NCBI GenBank assembly: GCA_001600175.1
Contig: BCJC01000005.1
Span: forward strand, 414,471 to 478,470
Origin: Erythrobasidium yunnanense
Taxonomy: Eukaryota > Basidiomycota > Cystobasidiomycetes > Erythrobasidiales > Erythrobasidiaceae
DNA: 64,000 nucleotides
Reading direction: 5' to 3'
A model generated the notes under the pieces. That model was not told the origin of the DNA, searched no databases, and saw only the letters and a list, made by a program, of their open reading frames with translations. Shown here piece after piece: positions 39,022 through 55,845 of this stretch. Numbering within the stretch: position 1 is the first letter of the stretch; each line of letters starts with the position of its first letter. The translations under genes were made by a program, and so were the position numbers.

Positions 39022-40797
39022 ATGCCATTGGCTCCATACCAGATTTCAGACTTCGAACATGCTGCTCTTACCAGCGTCTTCCTCCCATCCTGGCTCAAGC
39101 GGCCAGCTGCTCATTCCTCGCTATCTGAGAGCGTATCAGCCTAGCGTGTCTCCGTGCTACGGCCATTCTCGCTTCTCAGTCTTCATCGGCTGGCATCCGG
39201 TGTCAGACGGTCAACCCAGAACACCGCCCTCCCGCCCATCAGAAGAAAAAGCTGGCCTCCCTACAAGATCTGTCTGCGGGACGACCCTCTCTTCTCTTAC
39301 CCTGCGCCCCTTCAAAATCCGAAGGGATCGCCATGCCGAGCGTCATGGACAGATATGCGGCTGTCATCTACATGTCTGTAGGAGCAGTAAGGGGATCTGA
39401 CCTACAATGTCCGTCGGATCCTGACCTGACTGAAGAGGTGCTCTGTCTCAACAGTGCCTGTTCGGTGTCACGGACATCTTTGTCAAGCTTCTAGTCGACA
39501 ATGCAGACCAACCGGCGGTGAGTGTCCTGATCGATATTCGAGCTGTCACTTCCGCTCAAATATGACTTTCCAGGCGTTCATCCTCCTTGCACGCATGATC
39601 CTAACAACATTGGCTTGCTTGATGTTCATGTATTATCGGAAGTTCGAGAACCTCCTCGCTGGGCCACCTGAAGTTCGCGGTCTTCTGGTCGTAGGCGGTC
39701 TCTTGAGTGCGTCTCTGCTAGCTTCGTGTTGCTGTCCAACTATCTTACTGAGCTCTGTGTGTATCATATAGGAGTCGTTGGCGTCGGAGCATTCTATAGC
39801 AGCTTACATTGGCTGTCCTTGGGAGAAGCGATCTCGTTGTGGTATCTAACGCCCCTCGTCAGTAAGTTGACTAATGCGCAAGATAATATCGTCTTCGGGT
39901 CTGACTGTGAACATCTCCTTGTCAGCCGGAGTGATATGCAGTCTTCTCCTGAAAGAGCCATTCACGCGCTTCGAGTGGACATGCGGCATCATCGCCCTCT
40001 GCGGAACGTTTTTGATCGCACAACCAGCCTTCCTATTCTCCTCGTCAGCCAGCGAGAACATCAAATATCCGCATCGCATGCACGGCGTGTTGCAGATGGC
40101 TCTCTCAGTACTGGCCGACAGCTTCAACAAGTACCTCACAAGACGCATCGGTGATAGGGCACATAGCGTACACGTCGTGTATTACTATGCTTGGGTATCA
40201 GCGGCCGCTCTACTTATTGTCGCTATCTTCTTTCCCGATACAAGACCTAATCTGGATACTTGGACTTGGACTTGCTCGATGTATACGTTGACGGTACGTT
40301 AGATCGAATCTCTTTGTTTCGTGCTGTCTGAACTTTGTGGACAGCTGGCGACATGCGGATCGGTCGCAACATACTTGCACACGAGAGGTATGCTTCTACA
40401 TCATGAGCTACACGTCAGCCCCCGCTCATGCAATGATATCCCTCTTCTCAGCTGTCCAGCTTGCAAAAGCCGGCCGGATCTCGCTCCTATTCTATGTTCA
40501 GGTACGCTTGAAGGGCGACAGATGATAATGCTATCTGGCATCTGACCAAGAGTACCATCACAGATGCCCTTGGTAATGACGTTGAGCTACGTCGTCTTTG
40601 GAGATGCTTTGAATGCGCTGGGCTGGACCGGCAGCTTGATCATAGTCGGCACCTCGCTTGCTGTGGCTTTCACAAAGGACGAAGACTCGCATCCGGCACA
40701 GCAGAATTATGTAAAGGCAGCAGGTGAGGATGAAGAAGAGGGAATCGTGATGCTAGAGGAGCCGAAATCTGCACAACCATTGGTGGCCGCTGAATAG
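39022..40797 (+). CDS. DMT-superfamily (EamA-like) transporter, copy 1
   Basis: Polytopic membrane protein of about ten helices, drug/metabolite transporter superfamily (SLC35G-like). The N-terminus is soluble and basic (MPLAPYQISDFEHAALTS). It enters the membrane at MDRYAAVIYMSVGACLFGVTDIFVKLLVDNADQPA. Conserved EamA parts: FYSSLHWLSLGEAISLWYLTPLV, LLLKEPFTRFEWTCGIIALCGTFLIAQPAFLF, and the last repeat MPLVMTLSYVVFGDALNALGWTGSLIIVGTSLAVAFTK. The C-terminal tail is acidic. About seven exons. It is clearly related to the transporter at 46.8 kb; the two flank the MoeA-MobA pair. The substrate cannot be read from sequence. A link to the molybdenum genes rests only on position. Confidence 0.82.
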
Positions 40798-41116: not shown

Positions 41117-42569
41117 ATGGGATGCGGTGGTACAAGCTACGATGAAGCGCTATATATTCTGCACGAAGCGGCGGAGGTTGCAAGGCAAGCTCTGAGAATA
41201 GACGACCTGCCGTTACATACGACTTGCGGGCAAATCAATGCAGAAGATGTCTCTTCGACGAGATACCTCCCGCCTTTCGACAATAGTGCAATGGACGGCT
41301 TTGCGGTCTCATCAGAAGATACACTTTCAGCTTCTGAAGAAAGCCCTGTCCGGCTATCGATACTTGGCTCAATAGCGGCTGGTGATACTCCGCCTTCGTA
41401 TACTGGCCCAGAAGAGTATAAATGCTATCGTATAAATACTGGCGCGCCTTTTCCTGTTCCTTCTACCTCCCATCTTCCATCCCAGTTCGACGCGTGTGCA
41501 CGCATAGAGATTGTTCATTTCGTCGATGCGCATACTATAGAGCTGCGTGAGCCTGTGCGGAGTAACCAACATCGACGCTCAGCAGGTGAAGACTTCCAGC
41601 CGGGCATGGTTCTACTCAAGAAAGGTCAACGCATCTCGCCTGAAGATATAGCTGTCTTAGCATCCAATGGCGTCAGTCATCTCAAGATCGTTCAACAGCC
41701 ACGGATAGCTATCCTCACGACAGGGAAAGAGCTGAAAAGTCTGGAGGATCAGGATTCATCACCTGAAATTTCAGGAGGGGAGATCTTCAATAGTAACGGA
41801 TACTACCTGAGAGCTGCCCTGCAACAATGGGGGTATTCGAAGGTGACTCTTCTTGATCCCGTTGGAGATGATCCCAGGGTATTCCAAGATCGGATTCGGG
41901 AGGAGGTGCTGGAGGATTACGATGTGCTCATCACGACAGGTGGAGTCTCGAAGGGGGAGCATGATTATGTCAAGAGTGAGTGCGACTCGCTGGAGACAGG
42001 AGGACAACTGAGTTGATACTTCGTTCAATGCAGGCTCGCTAAAGCAGCTTGGAGCGAAAATTCAGTTTCATGGCATACGGATTAGACCAGGTCATCCTGT
42101 TCTCTTTGCGACTCTACCGAAGTCCACAACTGCCTCATCGAGCAGTAGTCAACGACACCTGTCAGTCTTCAGCTTGCCGGGAAATCCAGTCGCTGCAGCT
42201 GCATGCCTGCGGTTTGTTGCGATACCGTTCCTCAGGCAGCTAGCAGGGGTAGAACGGGAGAAGCCTCTTGTACGAGCTCGATTACGGATACCAAAGGCGA
42301 AGGGCAGACATATGCCATCGGTTGCATCTTGTCACGGGAACGTAACGAACGGCTCCTCTGTCGCTGTGACAGGCTCAACGTCCTTCCTACTAGCGCAATA
42401 TAGCATGTCTAGCGATTCAAAATCTGCCGAACTCGTAGTAGACCTTCTACCGAAAGGAAGCGGTATGCTCCGGCCTCTGGCTGCTGCAAATTGCTGGGCA
42501 TTCGTTCGGGAAGATCAAGCTCAAGAAGATGGTGAGCTTGTCGAATGTTGGCCATTGAGGCCGGCGTGA
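41117..42569 (+). CDS. moeA: Molybdopterin molybdenumtransferase, MoeA-type, stand-alone
   Basis: Inserts molybdate into adenylylated molybdopterin, the last general step of molybdenum cofactor synthesis. From 41117: YDEALYILHEAAEVARQ, LRIDDLPLHTTCGQINAEDV, the signature RYLPPFDNSAMDGFAV, IAAGDTPPSY, CYRINTGAPFPV, GEDFQPGMVLLKKGQRISPEDIAVLASNG, then PRIAILTTGKEL, FNSNGYYLRAAL and DYDVLITTGGVSKGEHDYVK in the MPT-binding domain. After one intron: FHGIRIRPGHPVLFATLP and SLPGNPVAAAACLRF, ending in the C-terminal domain with PLAAANCWAFV. Fungal CnxE is usually described as a MogA-MoeA fusion; here only the MoeA part is found, which is more bacteria-like. Convergent with MobA, 53 bases apart. Confidence 0.9.
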
Positions 42570-42622: not shown

Positions 42623-43510
42623 CTAGATGGTCAAGGAGCCCTGTGTTTCCGCGGCTTCTGGAGCAGATCCGAAGACGCGCTCCCACTCTTCAGGCGTGTC
42701 TGCGTCTTGAACCCACGCAGGATTGCTGGGTCGAACCAGGCCGTATCCTTCTGCTATCCCGCCGTTGGGCCTAATCTCCTTCCAGAGCTGCTTGGCAGTG
42801 AAGCAAGGTCCACTCTTGCCCTTTGCTGCATTCTCTTTCAATCGCTGTAGAGCTTTAGGTGTCCATACTGACATCAGGGGCTGAGCAGAATTCAGCTCAG
42901 AGCCTTTGTAGCCGGAATATATAGCAACGCACCTCAGGATTACCGTCCTCTGGATGAAGGAAGAGGGTTACTGGTTTGTTTTCCGCAGCCTCGTGGCCTT
43001 TGATGAGCTCTTCGAGGGCTTCTCGCCGAGCTTGTGGAAAGTCGACAGCTAGGATGACCAGTGTCCTGTCGGGATACTTTGCATGTACGGTGAGTATCCC
43101 AGTAGCAGGCCCGATATCACCTATGGTCTCTCTAGCATCCGGCAATGCATCGATGATGGCATGCTTCTGTGAATGTTCGAATGGAGGGAGCTTCATGCGT
43201 TCGAGCTGCGCTTCATCTCTGGCAGAGACAATGATACCTCCGTCCAGAATGCTTGCAGGTGGAAAGGCATGACGAAGAAGATGTTGGAATAGGGGCAGCT
43301 CAGCTTCTTGACCGGACTTGGTGCTGTCGAGCATGCGCAGGAAGGCTTTATCTTGCTTCACTGTACGCATAAGACTCGTTATGAGCCCTCGATAGACCAG
43401 AAGCAGGCGCATTCAATGCAGCTGAACTGACTTCGAGAAGATCGACCACCGCATAGGAGGAGCCCTGTATATCTAGGAGTATTGGAGGAAGTAGGAGAGG
43501 CAGACGACAT
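42623..43510 (-). CDS. mobA: MobA-like molybdenum cofactor guanylyltransferase
   Basis: Transfers GMP from GTP to Mo-molybdopterin to form MGD, the cofactor form used by DMSO reductase-family enzymes. The spliced N-terminus is YTGLLLCGGRSSRMKQDKAFLRML, the LxxGGxSxRMxxDK nucleotide-binding motif. An intron of about 70 bases falls exactly inside it. Then come a conserved GDIGPATGILTVHAKYPDRTLVILAVDFPQARREALEELI (the GPxxGI loop and the acidic metal site, here AVDFP in place of the usual ACDMP), and after a second intron PLMSVWTPKALQRLKENAAKG, matching the Pxx(G/V)xW/Y region. About 250 residues. The main alternative is another nucleotidyltransferase of the NTP_transf_3 group. Convergence with MoeA and a bis-MGD enzyme 5 kb away support MobA. 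MobA is generally described as absent from eukaryotes. Confidence 0.8.
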
Positions 43511-43871: not shown

Positions 43872-46269
43872 TCAATGTATTTCGGTTCCATATCTTTGCG
43901 TAAGGCTCTTCCAGTCTGGCGACCAAGATCCGCCTGCGTCCGAAAGGGCCGTCAACCCCGCGAAACCATCGCTGGTGTTCGCTCTCCTAGTCTCCGCAGC
44001 TGGATCTTCTAGATGCGGAGGCAAGGAAGGGTAGTCTTCGTTATTTGCTGTGAACACAGCAGACGAGTTGGCTGAATATCGGAAAGGCGAACCTGCTGTT
44101 GATGGCCTTTGCGGAACGTTCGAGACTGGAGGCGGAGTGGGAGTAGCGGAAAGGCCAGATTGTACCAAGGTGTTTTGCATGCCGCGCTTATAGTGCTCGT
44201 ACCCAGAACCGACATTATGGCCGAATGGAGCATCGCCCTCATGACCGGAGTGTGGAGATATAGACGCTGGTAGCGATGTGCCTGGATCAAGCTGTGCGAT
44301 ATGCTCGCCCGCAGCATCCTCTTGTATCGATGGGAAAGCAGGCGACAGACTTGTGAGACTCGGCCTTCTAGCAGCCAAGTAGGACGCCGCTGCAGAAGGC
44401 GGGAATCCAGCGTTCATCGGTGACGTTCCATTCAAGTTGTTCGGCGGTGTCAAGCCCGTAATACCGAACGGATGATGCGGCACCTGATTTGGCGCGGTGG
44501 ATGGCCTTGCATACGAGTTGGGCGAGGGATAGTAGCCATGGTACTGTTGTAGACCTCCAAACATAGGGATCGGTGGCATCGGTCCTGTAGATGGCGGTGT
44601 GACCAGACTTGGCTGAGAGGCGTTTAGAGGTTTTGAGGCATCACTCGAAAGCTGATGCTTGATGACCGAAGAGGCCAGGGAAGGGAGCTGAGGAGCTGAT
44701 TGATTGTGCGAGCCAAGACCTCCTCCTGTACTCGGACGTCTTTCTGCATTGGCATTCTCCTGCTCGTCGCGGTTCGCTTGCGCCTCATATTCCTTCTTCT
44801 TCTGTCGCCACGCTTTGCGGACTTCTTTGAACTCTATGAACAATGAGTCGGATCTTAGTATATTGCATTCGGATGTATAAGCGGAAGCGGCCTCACCTGC
44901 TGGCAGCCTCTTGGGTCCATGTTTTTGCATGCTAACATGCGCATTGAGATGATTTAGGGTACCATATGCCTTGTTACACCCAGGATAGTTGCAGTCGTAC
45001 AGTCTCTCAATCTCTTCGAAGCGTCTTCTAGGTCGCTTCTTCGGCTGACCTGGTGTGGTGATGAAGTTCATGTCCTCGCCTGCTGTTCCAGGGCGCTGCT
45101 GCGATGCCGATCCTCCATTCTGGTACGTATGGCTATTCTGCATATGCTGATAGTCGTTCATTGCTGACTTGCTCCCGTGGAGATCTGAAGCGCCGACCGT
45201 GTTATAGAGGGACGGGTGGCCAATGGAGTATGCATCAGGATGCGCAGTCTGTGTAGAGTAATTCGAGTACATAGATATACCCGTATCCGGGCGCGTATTA
45301 TCACTGGTGCCTGGACGGTAGCGGTCCTCATATTCAGAAGTAGCCGTTCCAGGGCGCACAGAGTAAGAAGTGGAAGGGATAGGCGGAGGTTGATGTGAGA
45401 AGATATCCGAAGACCCAGAAGGTAAGTAGGAAGTAGGGTCTTCTGACAATGTCGGCAATTGCTGAAAGTGTCCGCTTCGCGATGCGGAATTTGGCCCGGC
45501 TCCAGCACCTTGCGAAGGCATGCCTGCCAGAGAAGCGAATTGACGATGTGGCATCCCGAATCCTGCTCCATTGTATGTAGCTGGTGAGAACATGCCGCCA
45601 TGAGCCATATGATGATACCAGCTTGGGTTATTCACACCCGAAGGCGCAGTCATAGGGCGGCTGCATACGAAAGCACATAATTGTTAGCACAACAATCGTG
45701 GTCTATCTGCCGAGCTTTACTCACGTATTTGAGACGTTGTAGGCCTGAAGAGCAGCTTGCGGAATTGGGTAAGTCGCAGAAGGGTAGGGATGGGAATGGC
45801 CGTTCGGAAGCGGATGCGATAGGTTCGCAGACGTAGAGTGACCACTGGAAGTGTGAGAGCCCGATGCTGGCCCAGCGGTATTAATATTGGAGAGACCCGG
45901 TGGTGACGGCAGTGTATAGCCCCAAAGGCCATTTGGCCCACCAGCAGAGCCGGGAGGATTGTATGAAGCTTGCTGTGCTGGTGCTTCTCTGGCAGTATAG
46001 TGCGCAGCCAGATCCAGCGAGGATGAAGGGTTGTGAGGCTGTCGCTTTGCCAGATCTGTCACCGAGCCCGGTCTTGGGTATTCGTAGGAAGAATCATACT
46101 GCGGCTGTTTTCCTGCTCTAACACTACTTTCTGCATCTTGCGAACCAGGACTGAGGCCTTTCCCTGGGTTGGCGGCTGCTCCTGCGGTTGCGGGCCTCGA
46201 GCCTGACATCGATAGGGCGCCCGGCGCAACGCTCGACGGCACCGAGTAGCTGAAGTCTCCCATGTTCAT
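43872..46269 (-). CDS. C2H2-type zinc-finger protein, single finger
   Basis: Probable nuclear regulator of about 750 residues, mostly disordered and rich in Ser, Pro, Tyr, Gly and Gln. It starts at 46269 (MNMGDFSYSVPSSVAPG); the first intron joins YNVSNT to RPMTAPSGVNNPSWYHH. The DNA-binding part is basic (KKRPRRRFEEIERLYDC) followed by one C2H2 finger with a long linker, YDCNYPGCNKAYGTLNHLNAHVSMQKHGPKR, and then EFKEVRKAWRQKKKEYEAQ, a basic helix. This finger plus EFKE-helix layout is widely conserved in fungi but its targets are not known to me. The intron at 44834-44896 is 63 bases and stop-free, so it is easily missed; removing it joins GPKRLPA to EFKEVRKAW. Divergent from the second DMT transporter. 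Confidence 0.75.
44834..44896 (-). other. Stop-free 63-base intron in the single-finger C2H2 gene
   Basis: Donor GTGAGG, acceptor TCATAG, 3n length with no stop. The residues it would encode break the conserved finger-to-helix spacing. Confidence 0.65.
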
Positions 46270-46788
46270 ATTGAAGTACGTCGCTACGTGTATTCAGCGA
46301 CGGTACTTGCGAGCTTTTCGTTCGTTTCCGGGAGCTTTATGACAGCCAGACGAGCCAGCAAGAACCAGCGAAAGCACCAAGGAGCAGAGCGTCGGGACAG
46401 CCGTCCAGGATGGGAACAAACAAAGAGTCGCAGTGCGCTGTGCTCCTGATGCCTTGCGCCTTGGTATAATGCGCAAATCACGAAACGGGCATGCGGGCGG
46501 CAGCGAGATGTGACGATGATGGTACGAGGTGAAGGAAGTTGCAATTAATGAAGAGAACTGGGCTGATGATTCTACAGCTACAAGGAAGACACCACGGGAT
46601 GGGTGTACGATGACGAAACCGCTGGCCCTTTTCTGCGTTTGACCGTCAAACGTCGGGCTACGGCTCTCCCGGAATCGACTTCGGAGCTTGCACATCTGAC
46701 ACTTCCCAACATGCTATATTGCTGAGGCTTGTGCAGCTACTAACCTCCCATCTTTGTCCTGTCTGGGTCTTCCACCACGCTGTCCGCT
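46270..46788. promoter_or_regulatory. Divergent promoter C2H2 factor / DMT transporter 2
   Basis: About 520 bases between divergent starts. Minus-strand frames here lack family resemblance. No specific element recognised. Confidence 0.4.
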
Positions 46789-48256
46789 ATGCAAGATCCG
46801 TCTAAAGACAGCCTGTATGCGAAATTCAGGATTCGTATGAGCGAGATCTATGAAGATTATACCCCTGCCATCATGATGTCTACCGGCTCCGTTAGTGGAG
46901 CTCTGCGACCTTAGAAAGCGAAGAGACTGACCTTGAGGGGGTTGGCGTACCTAGTGCGCGTTCGCAACTATGGATATGCAGGCCAAGTATCTAATCGATA
47001 TTCGAGGCGTACCGCCTGCACGTACGCCTACCACCTATGTTTTCTAGCGGAAGCAAGCTGATAATGATGTAGCGATCTTGTTCGCCCGGATGTCCGTTAC
47101 AGCCATCATTGCATACCTGTACATGAAGCATACCGGAATGGAAGACCCTTTCCTGGGTCCGAAAGGAGTACGAACATGGCTACTCGTCCGTGGCATCGTT
47201 GGCGGATTCGGCGTCTTCATGTTCTATAGCGGCTTGCATTGGCTGCAGCTGGGCGATGCTCTTTCAATCTGGTTCACCAGCCCTCTCATGGGTGCGTTCA
47301 GCCTTTGCACCTCGAGCAGTCACCCAGTCGCTAAGTCTCACTTGATGTAGTTGGCATACTGTCCGCTCTCTTCTTGGCAGAACCGTTTACACGATTCCAA
47401 TGGATATGCGCAGCCATCTCCATGTGTGGAGTATTACTTGTCACAGAGCCGCCTTTTCTGTTTGGCTCCGACAGTACCGACAAAGTCCTTCCGAACCAAG
47501 CTCTCGGATTTTTCTATGCTATAACTGCCACTATCACTGGCTCAATATCTTTCGTGGTCCTGCGGCATATAGGGAGCAAAGCACATCCGCTCTTCTCAGT
47601 ATCATATTTCGGATGGTATGTGACTATGTATATGCTTCATTGGTTTGATCAGCTGAGGAAATTCTATAGGTGCACTGCAGCAGTAATGCTCCCAGTCATC
47701 ATTCTGTCGCCTTCGCAAAGGCCAGATCTGTCGAGTCTCGATGCCGTAGCCCTATTGGCTCTAGCTGGGGTCAGCTTTATGGTGAGCAAATAGGTACCGT
47801 CCTCTAGGTATCGAGCTGACCATTCTCTCAGGGCTGGGCAGCTACATATCTGACTAACAGAGGTGAGTCGCCGGTGTTCTAAAACTCTTTGCCCCCTGCT
47901 GACGGCAGCGATATTGCAGCCGTACAATCGGCGAAAGCGGGTCGCACTACCCTGCTTGTGTACACCCAAGTCAGTTCTTTTCAGTATAGAGTCGGTGTGT
48001 AGAGACTACTGATGAATCCTGATCCCTCAAGATACCGCTTGTGGTGCTTTATGGCTACTTCGTCTTCGGCGACGTGATGGACTTCTTCAGTATAGCTGGC
48101 TGCTTCGTGATAGTAGGGTCTGCCGTAGCCGTCACGCTGAAGAAGGAGAAAGAGGTGGGGACGAAAGAAGGACCTGAATATACCGCTTTATCGGACCGCA
48201 TCAGCAACGATGTGGAAGCGACGGGAGACGAAAGATCCAGCATAGACAATGCTTAG
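46789..48256 (+). CDS. DMT-superfamily (EamA-like) transporter, copy 2
   Basis: Paralogue of the transporter at 39.0 kb. A short soluble N-terminus (MQDPSKDSLYAKFRIRMSEIYEDYTPAIMMSTG) leads into small exons encoding CAFATMDMQAKYLI. Conserved segments: FARMSVTAIIAYLYMKHTG, VRGIVGGFGVFMFYSGLHWLQLGDALSIWFTSPLM, LFLAEPFTRFQWICAAISMCGVLLVTEPPFLFG, GFFYAITATITGSISFVVLRHIG, and IPLVVLYGYFVFGDVMDFFSIAGCFVIVGSAVAVTLKK. Matching motifs (FYSxLHWLxLGxAxSxW, EPFTRFxW) show common origin with copy 1 but substantial divergence. It ends convergently with the molybdopterin oxidoreductase. The substrate is not readable. Confidence 0.8.
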
Positions 48257-48604
48257 GCGGTAGCGTTTACCACAGCGCATTTGGTTGTTGGCTTGTAGCA
48301 TTTTTCTTTTCAAAGTATACGACTCTCTATAAAATACAGACCGCTGTCCCAACTTATTTATATGCCGTATCGAGACTTCCGTGTCTACCCGGACTGCAAT
48401 TTGACGTGCTTCGTTCCTTCGCTTACAGATCGCCGGATGCTTCGAGAGCAGGCACGATAAGCAGCTATTGCAGGCAAAGCATGTCAGTTGTATCCGCTTC
48501 CAACCAAAAAGATATGCATACCTGAGGTCCTCTGACTTTGATTCTAGAAGCGCCGACGAGAGAGATGTCTCAGCTCTATTCCCTGCCCCATAATGAGAAA
48601 TGCT
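48257..48604. other. Convergent intergenic region, nothing recognised
   Basis: About 350 bases between the stops of DMT transporter 2 and the molybdopterin oxidoreductase. Confidence 0.5.
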
Positions 48605-51600
48605 TACTGTGCTTCGATCCAAGCTTGGATCCTCGCATACTGATCATCAGCGTACTGCACGGCGTTCCCGAAAGCCGTATCATGTAGGGCTTTTCCAGCG
48701 GCCGTAAGAGGTGTCATGTATGATCGGACGGCACAGATCAGGATACTCATGCCTTGAAGATCCATCATGATGCTCATGACGTTTGTCTGATCTTTCCGGT
48801 GCGCAGGGAAGAGTGCTTGTCGGATGTGGACCTGATGAAGCTCGCCATTTTAGCTGGCAATAAGGGACGCGATAAGCGGAATGAACTTTACCATGTGTTT
48901 AGTCAGGGCTTTCTCTTCATTGTCACCATATGTATTAACGAAGCCGAGCATGTGTTTTCGAGCGTCTACCGTTCATGTCAGTACGTAGCCTCGTAGAACT
49001 GAACGCGGAGAGCATACCTTCTTCTAGCTGCAGCAGGACGCCGCTTCCAGTTGAGATCTCGTACTCTGTCGTGGATTTATGCTTGTTCATCATCGTAGTC
49101 GTTACGTCTCTGAAAGTATCGACTGAAGCGTTCCAAAGGCCAATGAAGTCTTCCATGTGTCGCTTTCGACCTTCCTTCTCGATGGCTCTCAGATGAGCAC
49201 CTTCAGCTCGCTCGACTGCTCGTCCGATAGCTTGCGTCTGCTTTTCGTGGATGTGCACCTCGCCTTGAGCGCACTTCTCGATCTTGACTGCACCACCCTT
49301 GAAGTACGGCTGTTTGCTGATGGGGTCCTGTGATAGCATACTTTTAGTATCAAGCTGCCTGACATACGGACTGTGTTCGCATACCCATCCAGATCGTGTA
49401 AGCTCGTTCGCCGCTTGCGAACGACCGTTGATTTCCGCCGCATCCCAAGTACCGAAGTGAAAGGGAACTGCATACATCATCAGTCGACTCTTCCTTCAGA
49501 AACTGATTCTCCGAGTTGACCACTCACTAAAGATCTGTCCGACCTCGATATTGCCGATGTTTGCGGGTAGCTGTACTTCTCCGTGTCTAGATTTGACGAC
49601 GACATGTTCTCCATCTTTGATGTCCATTCTTTTAGCGTCCTCTTCGTTAATTTGGATCCAGCATTCAGGCATGGCGTCGTGGAGCTTCTGTACTCGACCC
49701 GTCTTGGTTCTAGTATGCCAGTCTATAGAAGGATGCAAGATCAGTGGACGGCCATTGAGGTGAAGGGCGGCAATACGCACGATGAACACGTCGGCCAGTC
49801 GAGAGCGCGAAGGGGTACTCCTCATTCGGCATCTCATCAGAAGCTCGGAAGTGAGCGGCTTTCAAGATAGCTTTTCCATTAGGGTTGAGCTTCTTGTATT
49901 GAGGAAGGGAAAGAGCTGTGCCAGTCTCTAAGTCCGAAGTCCATGTTTGGCACTGTGAGCGTATACAAGCTTGATTCAGCTGACTATTTGTGTAGGGTGG
50001 GTCGAATAGCAACTTACGATGTCTTCCTTGGTCGAGAAGACTCCGCCGGTGTATAGACGCTCTGTGCCCTTTGGACTAGTCAACTCATTACAGGGCCATT
50101 GGATGCCATTTGCGCCGCGAAGCTTAGGATAGCTCAAGCTAGTAAAGTCCAGTATCAGCATGCTTCTATCCTCAGAAATCTCCTGTCTGCTTTGTGGAAA
50201 CCCACCCTGAATAATCACAAAGCGTATTTTCGCTCATCTTCCTCCAGACCTCAAAAGCCTCTTCAGAAGTTTTCCAATGCACCAGTGGTTTCCCATCTTT
50301 GTCAACAAACTCCATGCGCGTAGCGTAGTCTACCCAGATATCGAGGTCGCTCTTCGCTTCTCCGGGTGGATCGATGGCTTTTCCGGAGAGATGGACGGTA
50401 CGGTCGACATTTGTGTAGCAGCCATCTTTCTCGCCCCATCTGCAGATCACCGTTATGATTAGGTATGTTCCGCACGCTCGAGAGAAAAAGACGCTCACCC
50501 AGCTGCTGGCAGCACGACATCCGCAAGTGCGGTCGTCTCGTTACTGGACACAAACGGAATTAGCCATTTCTCTCTTCGACAGAGAATCAAGACTTACGGA
50601 AAGATATCCTGCGCTACGACAAACATGTTCGGCTGAGTCAAGATACCTCTAATCCTCTCGAGCTGGGGTAGGGAAACAGCAGGGTTTGTACCCGAGATCC
50701 AGAGCATTTCGATACTTCCATCTTGCATGTAGTTGAGCAGGTCATTGATGTTTGTAGGCTGGGCGTGGTGCGGTAGTTTGTCGACATCGATATTCCATGC
50801 TTTGGCGAGCTGCGTTTGTCCAAGCAGGTATACTCATTAGCAAGGGATTCTCTCAATGTAAGAGCGAAGTGTGCGTACTGATCTCATATGGTCCATATTC
50901 TGGAAATTCCTGAATGCTGGATATTCGCCATCGCAGCCCGTTTCTCTATTATTCTGTGCCGTCGGCTGTCCATTCATTTGCAGTACTCCCGCGCCGGGTT
51001 TTCCAATCATTCCTCTTATCAGATTGATATTATTGATCGCACACGCAGATGCTGTAGCTTGGTTCGACTGGTAGATGCCCTGCAGGGCAGTAGATACGAG
51101 TCTCTTGCATGTTCCGAGTATCTCAGCGGCCGCTTCGAGCTCAGTAGGTAAGACGCCTGAGATCTCTTCTACGTAGTCGGGGGTGTATTTGTCAACTACC
51201 GCTTTCAAATTCTCGAATTCGATAACGCTAGCGTCGATGAAAGATTGGTCGTACCACCCATTCTTGATGATCAACCGTTGGAGACCATTCAGGACGGCTA
51301 AGTTCGTGCCGATGCGCGGTTTCAGGTGAATAGTCGCTTCTTTGCCTACGCTGGTCGTGCGTGGGTCCATTACGACGAGTTTAGGTGCATCTTTGTGCTT
51401 GAGTCGATCGAGCATGCGAGCCCAGAGAACCGTTCCAGTAGCACCTGTTGCGAGTATTAGCTAACAGCAATGGCGATCGCGTGTGAAGAGCTTGCCTGGG
51501 TTGTGTCCAGCGATGAAGAGACAGTCGCACATGTCGATATCTGCATAACTTCCAGGCTGTCCATCTGCTCCAAACGATTCTCTCATAGAAGCAGCGGCCG

Positions 51601-52293
51601 TAGCTGTACAGAGTCTGGTATTTCCATCCATATGAAGCGTTCCGAGACCTGCAAGTATACCCACATCAGTATTCTTTCCACCTGTCTCATTGATGAGTTG
51701 GGCTCACCGGCTTTCCCGACCACTGCTAGCGTTAGGTATTCTTCGAGGAAGAGCTGGCCAGAGGTATAGAATGCAATACCGTGTGCTGTCAGGCGTTTCT
51801 GTACGTCTTTTGTCTGAGCAACGATGAGTGACATCGCTTCTTCCCATGTTGCGCGCTCCAGTTCTCCCGTTTCTTTATTTCGAATTTGCTAGATCCGCAC
51901 GAATCAGATTACAGTAACGAGATAGTCAGGGAAGAAAAGAAAGCTTACAGGGTATAGCAGCCTGTCCTTCGATGCCATAGACTGCCAGGCGTACATTCCT
52001 TTCGGGCCCAATCTTCCTTTATTGACACGATCGTGTTCTCTTCCTCGTACACCGACGACTGCGTTTACAAAACCACACATCAGCTTGATCCTCTTCCCCT
52101 GACACCATATGCAATAAGTGGAAACGCACTCTTGCCATCTTTGACACCGATATCGACACCGCATCCTATTGAGCAGGATATGCAAGCTGATGATACCCAT
52201 TTGTCGGGCGTATCTACGAGCTGCTCATCTACCCTCGAAGGCCAGGCGCCCGAGCCGGTATAAGGCGTTCTTTCTCCCCATAAATCGTTGCAG
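48605..52293 (-). CDS. Molybdopterin (bis-MGD) oxidoreductase, DMSO reductase family, nitrate reductase/formate dehydrogenase-like
   Basis: Large catalytic molybdoenzyme, over 900 residues across roughly fourteen exons. In order: LWGERTPYTGSGAWPSRVDEQL; a cysteine cluster SACISCSIGCGVDIGVKDGK; RVNKGRLGPKGMYAWQ; WEEAMSLIV; GIAFYTSGQLFLEEYLTLAVVGKAG; MDGNTRLCTATAAASMRESFG, whose Cys aligns with the molybdenum ligand of nitrate reductases; CDCLFIAGHNP; APKLVVMDPRTTSVGKEATIHL; INLIRGMIGKPGAGVLQMNGQPTAQNNRETG; FVVAQDIFPNETTALADVVLPAAG joined to WGEKDGCYTNVDRTVHLSG, a classic family signature; and the C-terminal Molydop_binding domain VVVKSRHGEVQLPANI to FHFGTWDAAEINGRSQAANELTRSGWDPISKQPYFKGGAVKIEK. 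A helical tail of unknown role follows. The fourth Fe-S cysteine is Gly (GRLGPKG). The 5' exon with the start codon is not resolved. Electron donor and substrate are unknown; nitrate reduction or formate oxidation are the leading options. Confidence 0.88.
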
Positions 52294-52935
52294 CTGGAAC
52301 GTCACACACAAGGGAGATGGAAGGAAGGGTAGGAAGGAAGCAAAGTGAGGGTATATCAGTATGAAAGCTTCAATATAACGTGTGCCATGGAGAGCTTCTT
52401 GAAGACCTCTTCTATATATAGCGGAGAGTTGTCTTGACTGACGCATTTCTCGACTCTTTGTACGATGGCCCTATCTCTGACGGGTTGACGCGATGGACGG
52501 GAGCTCCTTTGGGCATCGTAGTAGAACTCTGGAATGACCTTGGAATTGTCAGAAGCGAAAGCTGCCAGCGAATGAGAGCGCATGCGATAGGCCGGTTTCG
52601 TCGATCAGGTCAGCCATGAGCAAGGGATCTGCGAGGCACCAAGGTGTAACAGCAGAGTGAAGTGTCGTGCTTTGGCGGCGGTACAAGAAGCAGTTCAGAG
52701 CATTTAATTGCAATGTCTTTGTGCAGCTTTGAAGAATCAGTTGGCGCAATCTCGATGCAGAAGAAAGAAAAGGCGAAAGGAAAGCTCCTAGACGGGAAGA
52801 AATGCATTACCGCAAAGCAACAAGCAGTACATATTCCCAGTCCAGTGCACTGGTCTATCCTCCTGCATTCCTCGTTGTCTCGCTAGCTCTGCGATTCTCT
52901 CCCTCCAGCTGGTCAGGCTACGGTGAGAAGACCGT
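52294..52935. other. Upstream region of the oxidoreductase and 3' region of ubiquitin-S31
   Basis: About 640 bases. On the minus strand a TATATATA box lies at 52413-52420, about 120 bases before the first certain codon of the oxidoreductase. The missing first exon is probably here; an ATG at 52369 follows the TATA box but its downstream frame does not join by an obvious splice. Confidence 0.45.
52413..52420 (-). promoter_or_regulatory. Candidate TATA box of the molybdopterin oxidoreductase
   Basis: TATATATA within GCTATATATAGAAG on the minus strand, upstream of the coding start region. Confidence 0.4.
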
Positions 52936-54781: not shown

Positions 54782-55845
54782 ATGAGTCTGAACGATCCCA
54801 ACAAGCTTGCACGACGCCTATCCCGCGTAAAGCATATCGTCCTCGTTCTTTCAGGCAAAGGCGGCGTTGGCAAGAGCAGCATCAGCGTCCAGCTTGCCCT
54901 CTCCCTGCTCGCAGCGTCATCGACACAAAATGATGATGGATGTAAACCTACGAGGATTGGATTGCTCGATGTCGACCTTACGGGACCGTCTATACCGCGT
55001 ATGCTAGGGCTGGATGGAGCAGCCGTGCATCAGTCAGAAGACGGATGGGTGCCCGTCTATCTGCCATTACAACAGCAACAAGAAACATCTTCTACGACTG
55101 AGACGAGGAAGAACAACGATGAATTCAAAGTCATGTCGATAGGCTTTCTGCTCAAAGACTCAAGACAAGCTGTCATCTGGAGAGGGCCGAAGAAGTCGGC
55201 TATGATCAGGCAATTTCTAGCGGATGTCAGATGGGGCGATCTAGATTGGCTTGTGATAGATACTCCTCCAGGTACGTTACTCTCTTCCTTCGTTCACTCG
55301 CTCAAAAAGCTGAGATGTGTGATTGTTTAGGCACCTCCGACGAGCATATCTCATTACTAGAGAATCTGCTCCCCGCCATTCAATCCACCGGTACATCCAC
55401 GACCTTACACTCCATCCTCGTCACCACACCGCAAGCCGTCTCCTTATCCGACGTATCCAAAGAGCTCTCTTTCACGCGTCGTACAGGCTTACCCGTCCTA
55501 GGGTTAATCGAGAATATGTCAGGCTATATCTGTCCACACTGTGATGTGATACACAACATCTTCGGCAAAGGAGGCGGAGAGGAATTCTGTCGCTTAGAAT
55601 CAGAGAAAGCTATACGCGAGGGGAAACCGAAGAACGAGCAATTGAGGTTTCTGGGGAGGGTGCCGGTGGATAGTGAGTTTGTGAAAGTCGTAGATGGGCC
55701 GGAAAGTGGGATTGGGTTGTTGGAGAGATATAAGAAGACGGCCAGCTCCAAGATACTGCAGGAGATTTGTAGGACCGTGGTGGACCTCGTGGAAAGCCCG
55801 GAGCAAGAGGAAGCACCGAGTATAGAGGGTATCAAGATAGAGTAG
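54782..55845 (+). CDS. CFD1: Cytosolic Fe-S cluster assembly factor CFD1 (NUBP2)
   Basis: P-loop scaffold ATPase that, with NBP35, builds [4Fe-4S] clusters for cytosolic and nuclear proteins. The start at 54782 gives [31 protein letters not shown], the deviant Walker A with signature lysine. Then [67 protein letters not shown] (across the single intron near 55272-55330), [13 protein letters not shown], and the cluster-binding CxxC in [24 protein letters not shown]. About 330 residues, intact. The last 25 bases of its coding region resemble a segment upstream of the second F-box paralogue (57462-57486). Confidence 0.93.

What the first reader, a model, noticed from the sequence alone, without database searches (positions are those of the whole stretch)
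48605..52293. A bis-MGD molybdoenzyme gene with fungal introns
The spliced protein carries hallmark segments of the DMSO reductase family (CxxCxxxC cluster, TRLCTATAA with a likely molybdenum-ligating Cys, GVLQMNGQPTAQNN, DVVLPAAGWGEK, C-terminal Molydop_binding domain). Known eukaryotic molybdenum enzymes use the simple Mo-MPT cofactor, and eukaryotic relatives of this family are essentially limited to the degenerate complex I 75 kDa subunit. About a dozen short spliceable introns argue against contamination. This looks like a horizontally acquired, domesticated nitrate reductase or formate dehydrogenase-like enzyme.
Basis: partly seen in the sequence, partly recalled or inferred. Interest (0 to 1): 0.92.

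Follow-up and report, generated by a model that had tools for sequence, protein, structure and literature searches.

The report
Fungal bis-MGD molybdoenzyme with its own MobA
A fungal chromosome carries an intron-rich gene for a molybdenum enzyme of a type usually described as exclusively prokaryotic, and within a few kilobases lie genes resembling those that attach the guanine nucleotides and the molybdenum of its special cofactor, which suggests that some fungi make a cofactor thought to be absent from eukaryotes.

Summary
Window 52516-48423 (-) encodes a 993-aa DMSO-reductase-family protein in 18 exons (single copy). It is not complex I. It is not peculiar to this fungus: 76 of the 120 listed best matches are from named fungi, labelled 'nitrate reductase' or, more often, 'hypothetical protein'. 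Every fungal row sampled falls in one clade within a prokaryotic family.

Five kb away is a three-exon MobA-like gene (43510-42623), tail to tail with a stand-alone MoeA gene (41117-42569). MobA adds the guanine nucleotide of bis-MGD. A 2022 paper states that MobAB lacks fungal counterparts and that dinucleotide Moco is unknown in eukaryotes. This looks like a eukaryotic bis-MGD locus.

Substrate is open: the Mo-ligating Cys and an NR-type Arg are kept, but Thr replaces Met and Gly replaces the fourth cluster Cys, and no listed NR or FDH equivalog cut-off is met. No transcript, activity or structure was tested. The MobA match is divergent, and no MobA match carried a fungal name.

The parts
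48423..52516 (-). DMSO-reductase-family molybdoenzyme gene, 18 exons, 993 aa: N-terminal FeS domain, Mo-bisMGD-type core, Molydop_binding domain, C-terminal extension of about 190 aa
   Evidence: single copy in G000
52130..52293 (-). exon 2, holds the three-Cys cluster motif C62-x2-C65-x3-C69
   Evidence: C at these sites in 177, 177 and 178 of 192 family rows
51949..52058 (-). exon 3, holds Gly97 where the outgroups have the fourth cluster Cys (GRLGPKG)
   Evidence: Gly in 184 of 192 family rows, Cys in 4 of 4 outgroup rows
51496..51648 (-). exon 5, holds presumed Mo ligand Cys190 followed by Thr191 (TRLCTATAA)
   Evidence: C and T in 191 of 192 family rows, gap in the other
50879..51444 (-). 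exon 6, holds GQPTAQNNR with Arg394
   Evidence: R in 192 of 192 family rows
49528..49722 (-). exon 12, main part of the molybdopterin-dinucleotide-binding domain
   Evidence: PF01568 50.9 bits on window 49496-49861; whole protein 94.6 bits
48423..49327 (-). exons 14-18: end of the dinucleotide-binding domain, then the C-terminal extension, which is a separate small gene downstream of the enzyme gene in many bacteria
42623..43510 (-). mobA-like gene, 3 exons, 254 aa (molybdenum cofactor guanylyltransferase)
   Evidence: PF12804 54.6 bits (cut-off 27); NCBIfam MobA families, all under their cut-offs
41117..42569 (+). moeA gene, 2 exons, 464 aa, stand-alone (molybdotransferase)
   Evidence: PF03453, PF00994, PF03454 all above cut-off
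46789..48256 (+). EamA-like transporter gene between the mobA-like and enzyme genes; extent approximate, exons not modelled; membership of the locus uncertain
   Evidence: PF00892 29.1 bits (cut-off 28.2) on 47335-47793; extent read
43875..46293 (-). gene with one C2H2-type zinc finger by eye (CNYPGCNKAYGTLNHLNAHVSMQKH); candidate regulator; membership uncertain
   Evidence: read; no Pfam match for 43872-45683

Best explanation
This is a eukaryotic bis-MGD locus. The fungus makes Mo-MPT by the normal route (MoaC and a fused Cnx1-type MogA-MoeA protein are present). A dedicated stand-alone MoeA then loads molybdenum, and a MobA homologue adds GMP to give (bis-)MGD. The cofactor goes into the 993-aa DMSO-reductase-family enzyme, whose Mo is held by Cys190 and whose N-terminal cluster has three Cys ligands. 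The enzyme most likely works in the cytosol as a reductase of an oxyanion or N-oxide, nitrate being the first candidate, taking electrons from a separate carrier. Shown by sequence: genes, splice model, domains, linkage, one clade of the sampled fungal enzymes. Inferred: cofactor form, cluster type, localisation, electron donor, activity. Substrate nitrate: about 0.4 on its own. The confidence given is for the cofactor and enzyme part.
For: 18-exon gene, open throughout, with all three family domains above cut-off. 76 of 77 named-fungus rows (query included) read Cys-Thr-Arg at sites 190, 191, 394; one row has a gap. Fungi in one clade: 39 rows (26 of named fungi, query included, and 13 unnamed) at SH-aLRT 100; 17 rows (13 named or query, 4 unnamed) at 100 with a mixture model. 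The better of two MobA-like signals in G000 is in this window, 4.9 kb from the enzyme gene; the other is a UDP-sugar pyrophosphorylase by eye. The spliced MobA model scores PF12804 54.6 bits, and 8 of its 9 NCBIfam matches are MobA or MobA-fusion families; the only solved structure found is a MobA (weak, E 0.29 and 0.058). MoeA is tail to tail with it, 53 bases apart, while G000 has a separate fused Cnx1-type gene and MoaC. By my arithmetic, made after the fact, chance placement of either gene within about 12 kb of the enzyme gene in 20.9 Mb is near 1e-3 each. One bacterial relative of 80 loci (L016) has a MoeA gene (35% identical), with MoaA-, MoaC- and MoaE-like genes by eye, beside its copy. 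Six of 13 aligned MobA relatives break at the same exon border.
Against: No transcript, protein, cofactor or activity data. The MobA exons miss the default threshold in the genome search (E 0.0021 and 21.9 bits, under the 27-bit cut-off), TIGR02665 found nothing at E 10 and the motif pattern found nothing; the spliced protein is far below the TIGR02665 cut-off (30 against 151.85), though that cut-off is passed in only 1 of 14 control genomes. Of 25 and 47 MobA matches none bears a fungal name; the one organism name shown is a bacterium. So co-occurrence with the enzyme across fungi is not shown. G000 has no FdhD match. Two unrelated-looking genes lie between mobA and the enzyme gene. In bacteria mobA is not a usual neighbour: one weak hit in 80 loci, not used. 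Canonical eukaryotic nitrate reductases seem to be present (b5 and FAD parts by eye), so an assimilatory role is not needed.
Confidence: 0.75

Rival explanations
1. The enzyme is a real bis-MGD enzyme but not a nitrate reductase: it reduces or oxidises another small molecule (another oxyanion, an N-oxide, formate).
For: Own clade: among the 40 listed of 1208 plasmid records, members are 43-56% identical to it and the next hits, NasC-type and others, 30-34%. Thr after the Mo-ligating Cys in 191 of 192 rows, Met in 3 of 3 NR-like outgroups. Fails the listed NR equivalog cut-offs. In the five plasmid loci of the family read (L093-L097; that gene table is incomplete) no nirBD is annotated, while the two NasC-type outgroups L098 and L100 sit beside nirB. 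NirB-like hits in only 3 of 80 loci, 28% identity.
Against: GQPxA..R with the Arg of the NR-like outgroups; best solved relative is periplasmic nitrate reductase. HPP membrane genes in 10 of 70 loci and SLAC1 genes in 7 of 70, one representative of each tested with Pfam, are anion transporters by recall.
Confidence: 0.45
2. The enzyme binds a nucleotide-free cofactor (bis-Mo-MPT or Mo-MPT), and the MobA-like protein serves something else.
For: A bis-Mo-MPT protein, E. coli YdhV, exists (abstract of PMC9103625); the MobA match is divergent.
Against: Linkage of the MobA-like and MoeA genes to the only such enzyme gene in the genome; an intact Molydop_binding domain; GMP was needed for cofactor insertion into a family member, TorA (abstract).
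Confidence: 0.1
3. Linkage of mobA and moeA to the enzyme gene is coincidence.
For: Two other genes lie between; only one genome could be read.
Against: Tail-to-tail mobA-moeA pair and both within 12 kb in a 20.9-Mb genome.
Confidence: 0.05
4. It is a complex I 75-kDa subunit or a degenerate, cofactor-free relative.
For: Weak matches to 75-kDa subunits (best E 9e-11).
Against: NuoG 110.8 bits against cut-off 470; E 1e-114 to NapA; separate, stronger Molybdopterin-domain hit at G000:C3:1562190 taken as the complex I gene; Mo-ligand Cys kept in 191 of 192 rows.
Confidence: 0.02
5. Bacterial contamination or a chimeric assembly.
For: Bacterial-looking protein.
Against: 17 introns, 13 with in-frame stops; position inside a 2.03-Mb contig; flanked by a ubiquitin-ribosomal fusion gene (by eye) and an iron-transfer NTPase gene; fungal clade.
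Confidence: 0.01

Closest known systems
Bacterial family annotated 'nitrate reductase' / 'molybdopterin oxidoreductase family protein', e.g. Halomonas sp. KO116 WP_035556002.1 and the loci L013-L092
   Same: Same domains, 45-57% identity in the best segment of the 80 loci kept, same Cys-Thr; Gly97 in most; long forms (19 of 70 loci) have the same C-terminal extension
   Different: No introns; in 31 of 70 loci with a called gene the C-terminal part is a separate small gene directly downstream, and in 20 it was not found
Periplasmic nitrate reductase NapA, Desulfovibrio type (2jim)
   Same: Best solved relative, aligned over residues 53-788, E 1.2e-114; Cys Mo ligand and matching Arg region
   Different: Fourth cluster Cys present, Cys-Met at the active site; query below the NapA equivalog cut-offs
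Assimilatory nitrate reductase NasC/NarB
   Same: Core domains and GQPxA..R motif
   Different: About 32-33% identity for the two NasC-type outgroups L098 and L100; Cys-Met; 383 of 1100 bits
Arsenite oxidase AioA
   Same: Also a family member with three Cys ligands and a non-Cys fourth position (3Fe-4S cluster; recalled)
   Different: Weak match, 164.6 of 359.05 bits; Mo not held by Cys there (recalled)
Bacterial MobA and MoeA
   Same: Pfam domains above cut-off; MobA-type GGRSSRM..DK and DADTPEEW motifs (motif recalled)
   Different: MobA is divergent (30 bits to TIGR02665); MoeA 29-33% identical to the 15 listed of 187 plasmid matches and 29% to the fungus's own Cnx1-type domain

Membership tests
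DMSO reductase family | Fe4S4, Molybdopterin and Molydop_binding domains | tested here: met
   54.4, 170 and 94.6 bits, all above cut-off
DMSO reductase family | amino-acid Mo ligand (Cys in the NR/FDH branch) | tested here: met
   Cys190, conserved in 191 of 192 rows; ligation itself inferred
DMSO reductase family | bis-MGD cofactor bound | not testable with these tools
   only indirect: linked mobA-like and moeA genes
NasC/NarB/NapA nitrate reductases | equivalog score cut-off | tested here: not met
   NasC 383.4 of 1100, NapA 339.6 of 904; bacterial members of this family were not scored
NasC/NarB/NapA nitrate reductases | four-Cys cluster and Cys-Met active site | tested here: not met
   three Cys, fourth is Gly in 184 of 192 rows; Thr191 in 191 of 192
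NasC/NarB/NapA nitrate reductases | nitrate reduction | not testable with these tools
   no assay
Formate dehydrogenase | equivalog score cut-off | tested here: not met
   TIGR01591 488.5 of 666.25
Formate dehydrogenase | FdhD sulfurtransferase in the genome | tested here: not met
   PF02634: no match in G000, match in 8 of 14 control genomes; introns may hide a gene
Complex I NuoG/NDUFS1 | NuoG score cut-off | tested here: not met
   110.8 of 470.05 bits
MobA guanylyltransferase | MobA-like NTP transferase domain | tested here: met
   PF12804 54.6 bits, cut-off 27, spliced model
MobA guanylyltransferase | TIGR02665 MobA equivalog cut-off | tested here: not met
   30 of 151.85 bits; cut-off passed in only 1 of 14 control genomes
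MobA guanylyltransferase | GMP transfer to molybdopterin | not testable with these tools
   no assay
MoeA molybdotransferase | MoeA_N, MoCF_biosynth and MoeA_C domains | tested here: met
   120.3, 95.9 and 31.6 bits, all above cut-off

The most novel reading that the evidence does not exclude
Fungi anciently acquired a complete bis-MGD system: a bacterial DMSO-reductase-family enzyme together with a guanylyltransferase and a second molybdotransferase. They have kept it across phyla as a second, dinucleotide branch of Moco biosynthesis beside Cnx1/gephyrin, giving eukaryotes a further molybdoenzyme family, possibly with an unusual three-cysteine FeS cluster and a new substrate.
Probability: 0.5. 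Interest if true: 0.93.

Novelty: new variant of a known kind. Interest (0 to 1): 0.86.

Why it matters
[quoted passage not shown] A survey of almost 5900 organisms looked for eukaryotic molybdoproteins with human SO, XO and mARC queries (passage in PMC6147048) and so, as I read it, could not see this enzyme. A fungal mobA-moeA-enzyme locus would overturn these statements, add a Moco branch to fungal biochemistry, and make a widespread fungal protein, often labelled 'nitrate reductase', testable in genetically tractable fungi.

Tried and rejected
Complex I origin and contamination were considered and rejected. 'Unique to this fungus' was rejected. Absence of MobA was my first reading after (default threshold, motif pattern and TIGR02665 all empty); the relaxed search showed a place below the cut-off, and the spliced model then scored above it. 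The pattern failed because the gene has RMK instead of RMG and an intron inside the motif. Donor lineage: not resolved; in the mixture tree the fungal clade joins a polytomy with several prokaryotic lineages. Neighbour clusters in bacteria gave no clear substrate: the small C-terminal gene in 31 of 70 loci, HPP 10, alcohol dehydrogenase 9, ABC ATPase (by eye) 8, SLAC1 7. The MobA profile hit in L060 lies in a poorly called ORF of a GC-rich locus and was not used. Searches found no convincing named family for the small subunit: Pfam none, NCBIfam and PDB only weak matches (E 0.03). Ten of the 80 fetched prokaryotic loci gave no called enzyme ORF, probably because an overlapping longer ORF was kept, and were left out of neighbour counts. 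The 80 loci are the best of at least 579, so they lean towards close relatives. The trees use 50 and 23 of the 120 listed proteins and 35 and 24 of the loci. No MobA tree and no tree with NuoG rows was built.

Papers: ten full-text searches; none of the papers listed has a title or abstract start that reports a fungal bis-MGD enzyme or fungal MobA. Two lists were cut: 20 of 573 shown and 20 of 10,072. The library holds only open-licence PMC papers. Seen: PMC9370521 passages; PMC9103625 abstract and passages; PMC6147048 passages; PMC7816997 abstract and section 15; PMC6650914 passages; PMC4633490, PMC10609526 and PMC2040219 only as search listings with the start of the abstract.
Full report
The gene. 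Guided by homologues I extended the model to 18 exons, 52516-48423, 993 aa. Thirteen of 17 introns contain an in-frame stop and 9 of 17 have a length that is not a multiple of three; 16 are GT-AG and one is GC-AG. A search of the whole assembly finds this gene once: all 12 matching pieces lie in it. The other Molybdopterin-domain gene, on contig C3, scores far better to that profile and I take it as the complex I subunit. Pfam finds the three domains of the DMSO reductase family above cut-off. Against solved structures the best match is periplasmic nitrate reductase (E 1.2e-114, residues 53-788); 75-kDa complex I subunits come in only at 9e-11.

Who else has it. The search scored 8000 candidates, 7507 of which match; the best 120 are listed, and 76 of these are from named fungi: mostly Ascomycota, several Basidiomycota (Crassisporium, Filobasidium, Naganishia, Rhodotorula and relatives) and one chytrid (Rhizophlyctis). 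More are called hypothetical protein than nitrate reductase. Prokaryotic members, the best 80 of at least 579, are 45-57% identical in the best segment and come from many phyla, one archaeal bin included. In a tree of 90 rows the 26 rows of named fungi (query included) fall in one clade of 39 rows, the other 13 unnamed (SH-aLRT 100). A mixture-model tree of 50 rows puts the 17 rows that I labelled fungi (4 of them unnamed) in one clade at 100. Inside it, Saitoella branches next to Pezizomycotina, and the basidiomycetes group together (96), less clearly (89, without Crassisporium). The simplest reading is one old acquisition and vertical descent with losses. The donor is not resolved.

Active site. 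In an alignment of 192 family rows (query, 120 proteins, 70 prokaryotic loci, one Staphylococcus plasmid protein), Cys190 and Thr191 are kept in 191 (one gap) and Arg394 in 192. The three cluster Cys are kept in 177, 177 and 178 rows, but the fourth position is Gly in 184; all four outgroup rows have Cys there, and the three NR-like outgroups have Met after the Mo-ligating Cys. Among 77 named-fungus rows (query included) 71 read Cys-Cys-Cys-Gly; the other six have gaps or changes, some of which look like gene-model faults. Nine of 71 prokaryotic rows, all from genera of Actinomycetota by their record titles, have lost the cluster Cys (S/A-H-D, fourth site D or G). So this is a distinct branch, nearer to nitrate reductases than to formate dehydrogenases in its Arg motif, but a member of neither by score. 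A three-Cys cluster suggests 3Fe-4S as in arsenite oxidase (recalled), not shown.

C-terminal part. Fungi and long bacterial forms carry an extension of about 190 residues that has no Pfam match in the query. Of 70 loci with a called enzyme gene, 19 are of the long form, 31 have a separate gene of about 152 aa, median 37 bases downstream, and in 20 neither was found. This fits a fused small subunit. Its fold could not be predicted because the machine stayed busy.

Cofactor genes in the same window. Searching the assembly for MobA at default thresholds gave nothing. With the threshold relaxed, PF12804 gave two places, and the better one (E 0.0021, under the curated cut-off) is at window 42966-43241; the other is a UDP-sugar pyrophosphorylase by eye. 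PF00994 gave exons at window 41708-42236. Reading the region shows a three-exon gene, 43510-42623, and, 53 bases away tail to tail, a two-exon gene, 41117-42569. The spliced proteins are MobA-like (PF12804 54.6 bits; 8 of 9 NCBIfam matches are MobA or MobA fusions, all under their equivalog cut-offs) and a complete MoeA (three domains above cut-off). The fungus also has a fused Cnx1-type gene on the same contig 1.07 Mb away and MoaC, so this MoeA is an extra, stand-alone copy, 29% identical to the Cnx1 domain. The closer MobA relatives come from unnamed metagenome contigs; six of the 13 aligned (P0121, P0125-P0128, P0131) lose similarity at the same exon border, and P0121 and P0158, both on a contig of 23,959 bases, are the two halves. 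I take them as eukaryotic genes cut by introns; organisms are not named.

Interpretation. The enzyme type that needs bis-MGD, the transferase that makes MGD and a second molybdotransferase lie within 11.4 kb in a 20.9-Mb genome. In one bacterium of the 80 loci, L016, the enzyme gene also lies beside a MoeA gene (35% identical to the fungal one), with MoaA-, MoaC-, MoaE- and molybdate-transporter-like genes recognised by eye. The best explanation is a working eukaryotic bis-MGD locus. Against it stand the missing experiments, the divergence of MobA, the two other genes inside the locus, and the lack of fungal names among the MobA matches. The substrate is open: the name nitrate reductase in databases rests, as far as I can see, on homology; HPP and SLAC1 neighbours (10 and 7 of 70 loci) hint at anion transport; but nitrite reductase genes are not annotated in the five plasmid loci of the family that I read, whereas they are next to the two NasC-type outgroups. 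The fungus seems to have canonical nitrate reductases too (partly by eye).

What is known. [quoted passage not shown] Tiedemann et al. 2022 say that eukaryotes produce only SO and XO family enzymes. Peng et al. 2018 used human SO, XO and mARC queries for eukaryotes. The ten searches of the open-licence library listed no paper on this fungal enzyme (limits told in Tried and rejected). The sequences themselves are public, so the novelty is the recognition of the system and the linked cofactor genes, not the existence of the protein.

Noticed in passing
L050, L052, L055, L061, L063, L066, L068, L078, L081: Nine actinobacterial members replaced the cluster Cys by S/A-H-D (fourth site D or G) while keeping the Mo-ligand Cys; the FeS cluster may be lost or the site reused for another metal.
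   Followed up: partly
downstream of the enzyme gene in 31 of 70 loci, e.g. L067:6202-6657: A conserved protein of about 152 aa with no Pfam match for the one tested (H28, E31, D33 nearly invariant in 25 aligned), fused to the enzyme in long forms and fungi; likely an undescribed small subunit.
   Followed up: partly
L016:4922-13353: Deltaproteobacterial locus where the enzyme gene and an HPP gene sit beside a moeA gene and apparent moaA, moaC, moaE and molybdate-transporter-like genes (last four by eye).
   Followed up: partly
window 54782-55327: An iron-transfer P-loop NTPase (PF10609, Cfd1/Nbp35-like by eye) starts about 2.3 kb from the enzyme gene; a cytosolic FeS assembly factor near an FeS enzyme may be chance.
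   Followed up: no
window 39672-40797 and 46789-48256: Two genes that look like EamA-type transporters (Pfam supports the second only), partly similar (49% over 35 aa), lie on either side of the moeA-mobA pair.
   Followed up: no
window 51495-51445: Intron 5 of the enzyme gene is of the GC-AG type.
   Followed up: no
G000 C7:1721199, C2:2735713 (L110, L112): Two apparent canonical eukaryotic nitrate reductase genes, the first near a siroheme-synthase-like gene (by eye; PF00174, ORFs).
   Followed up: partly
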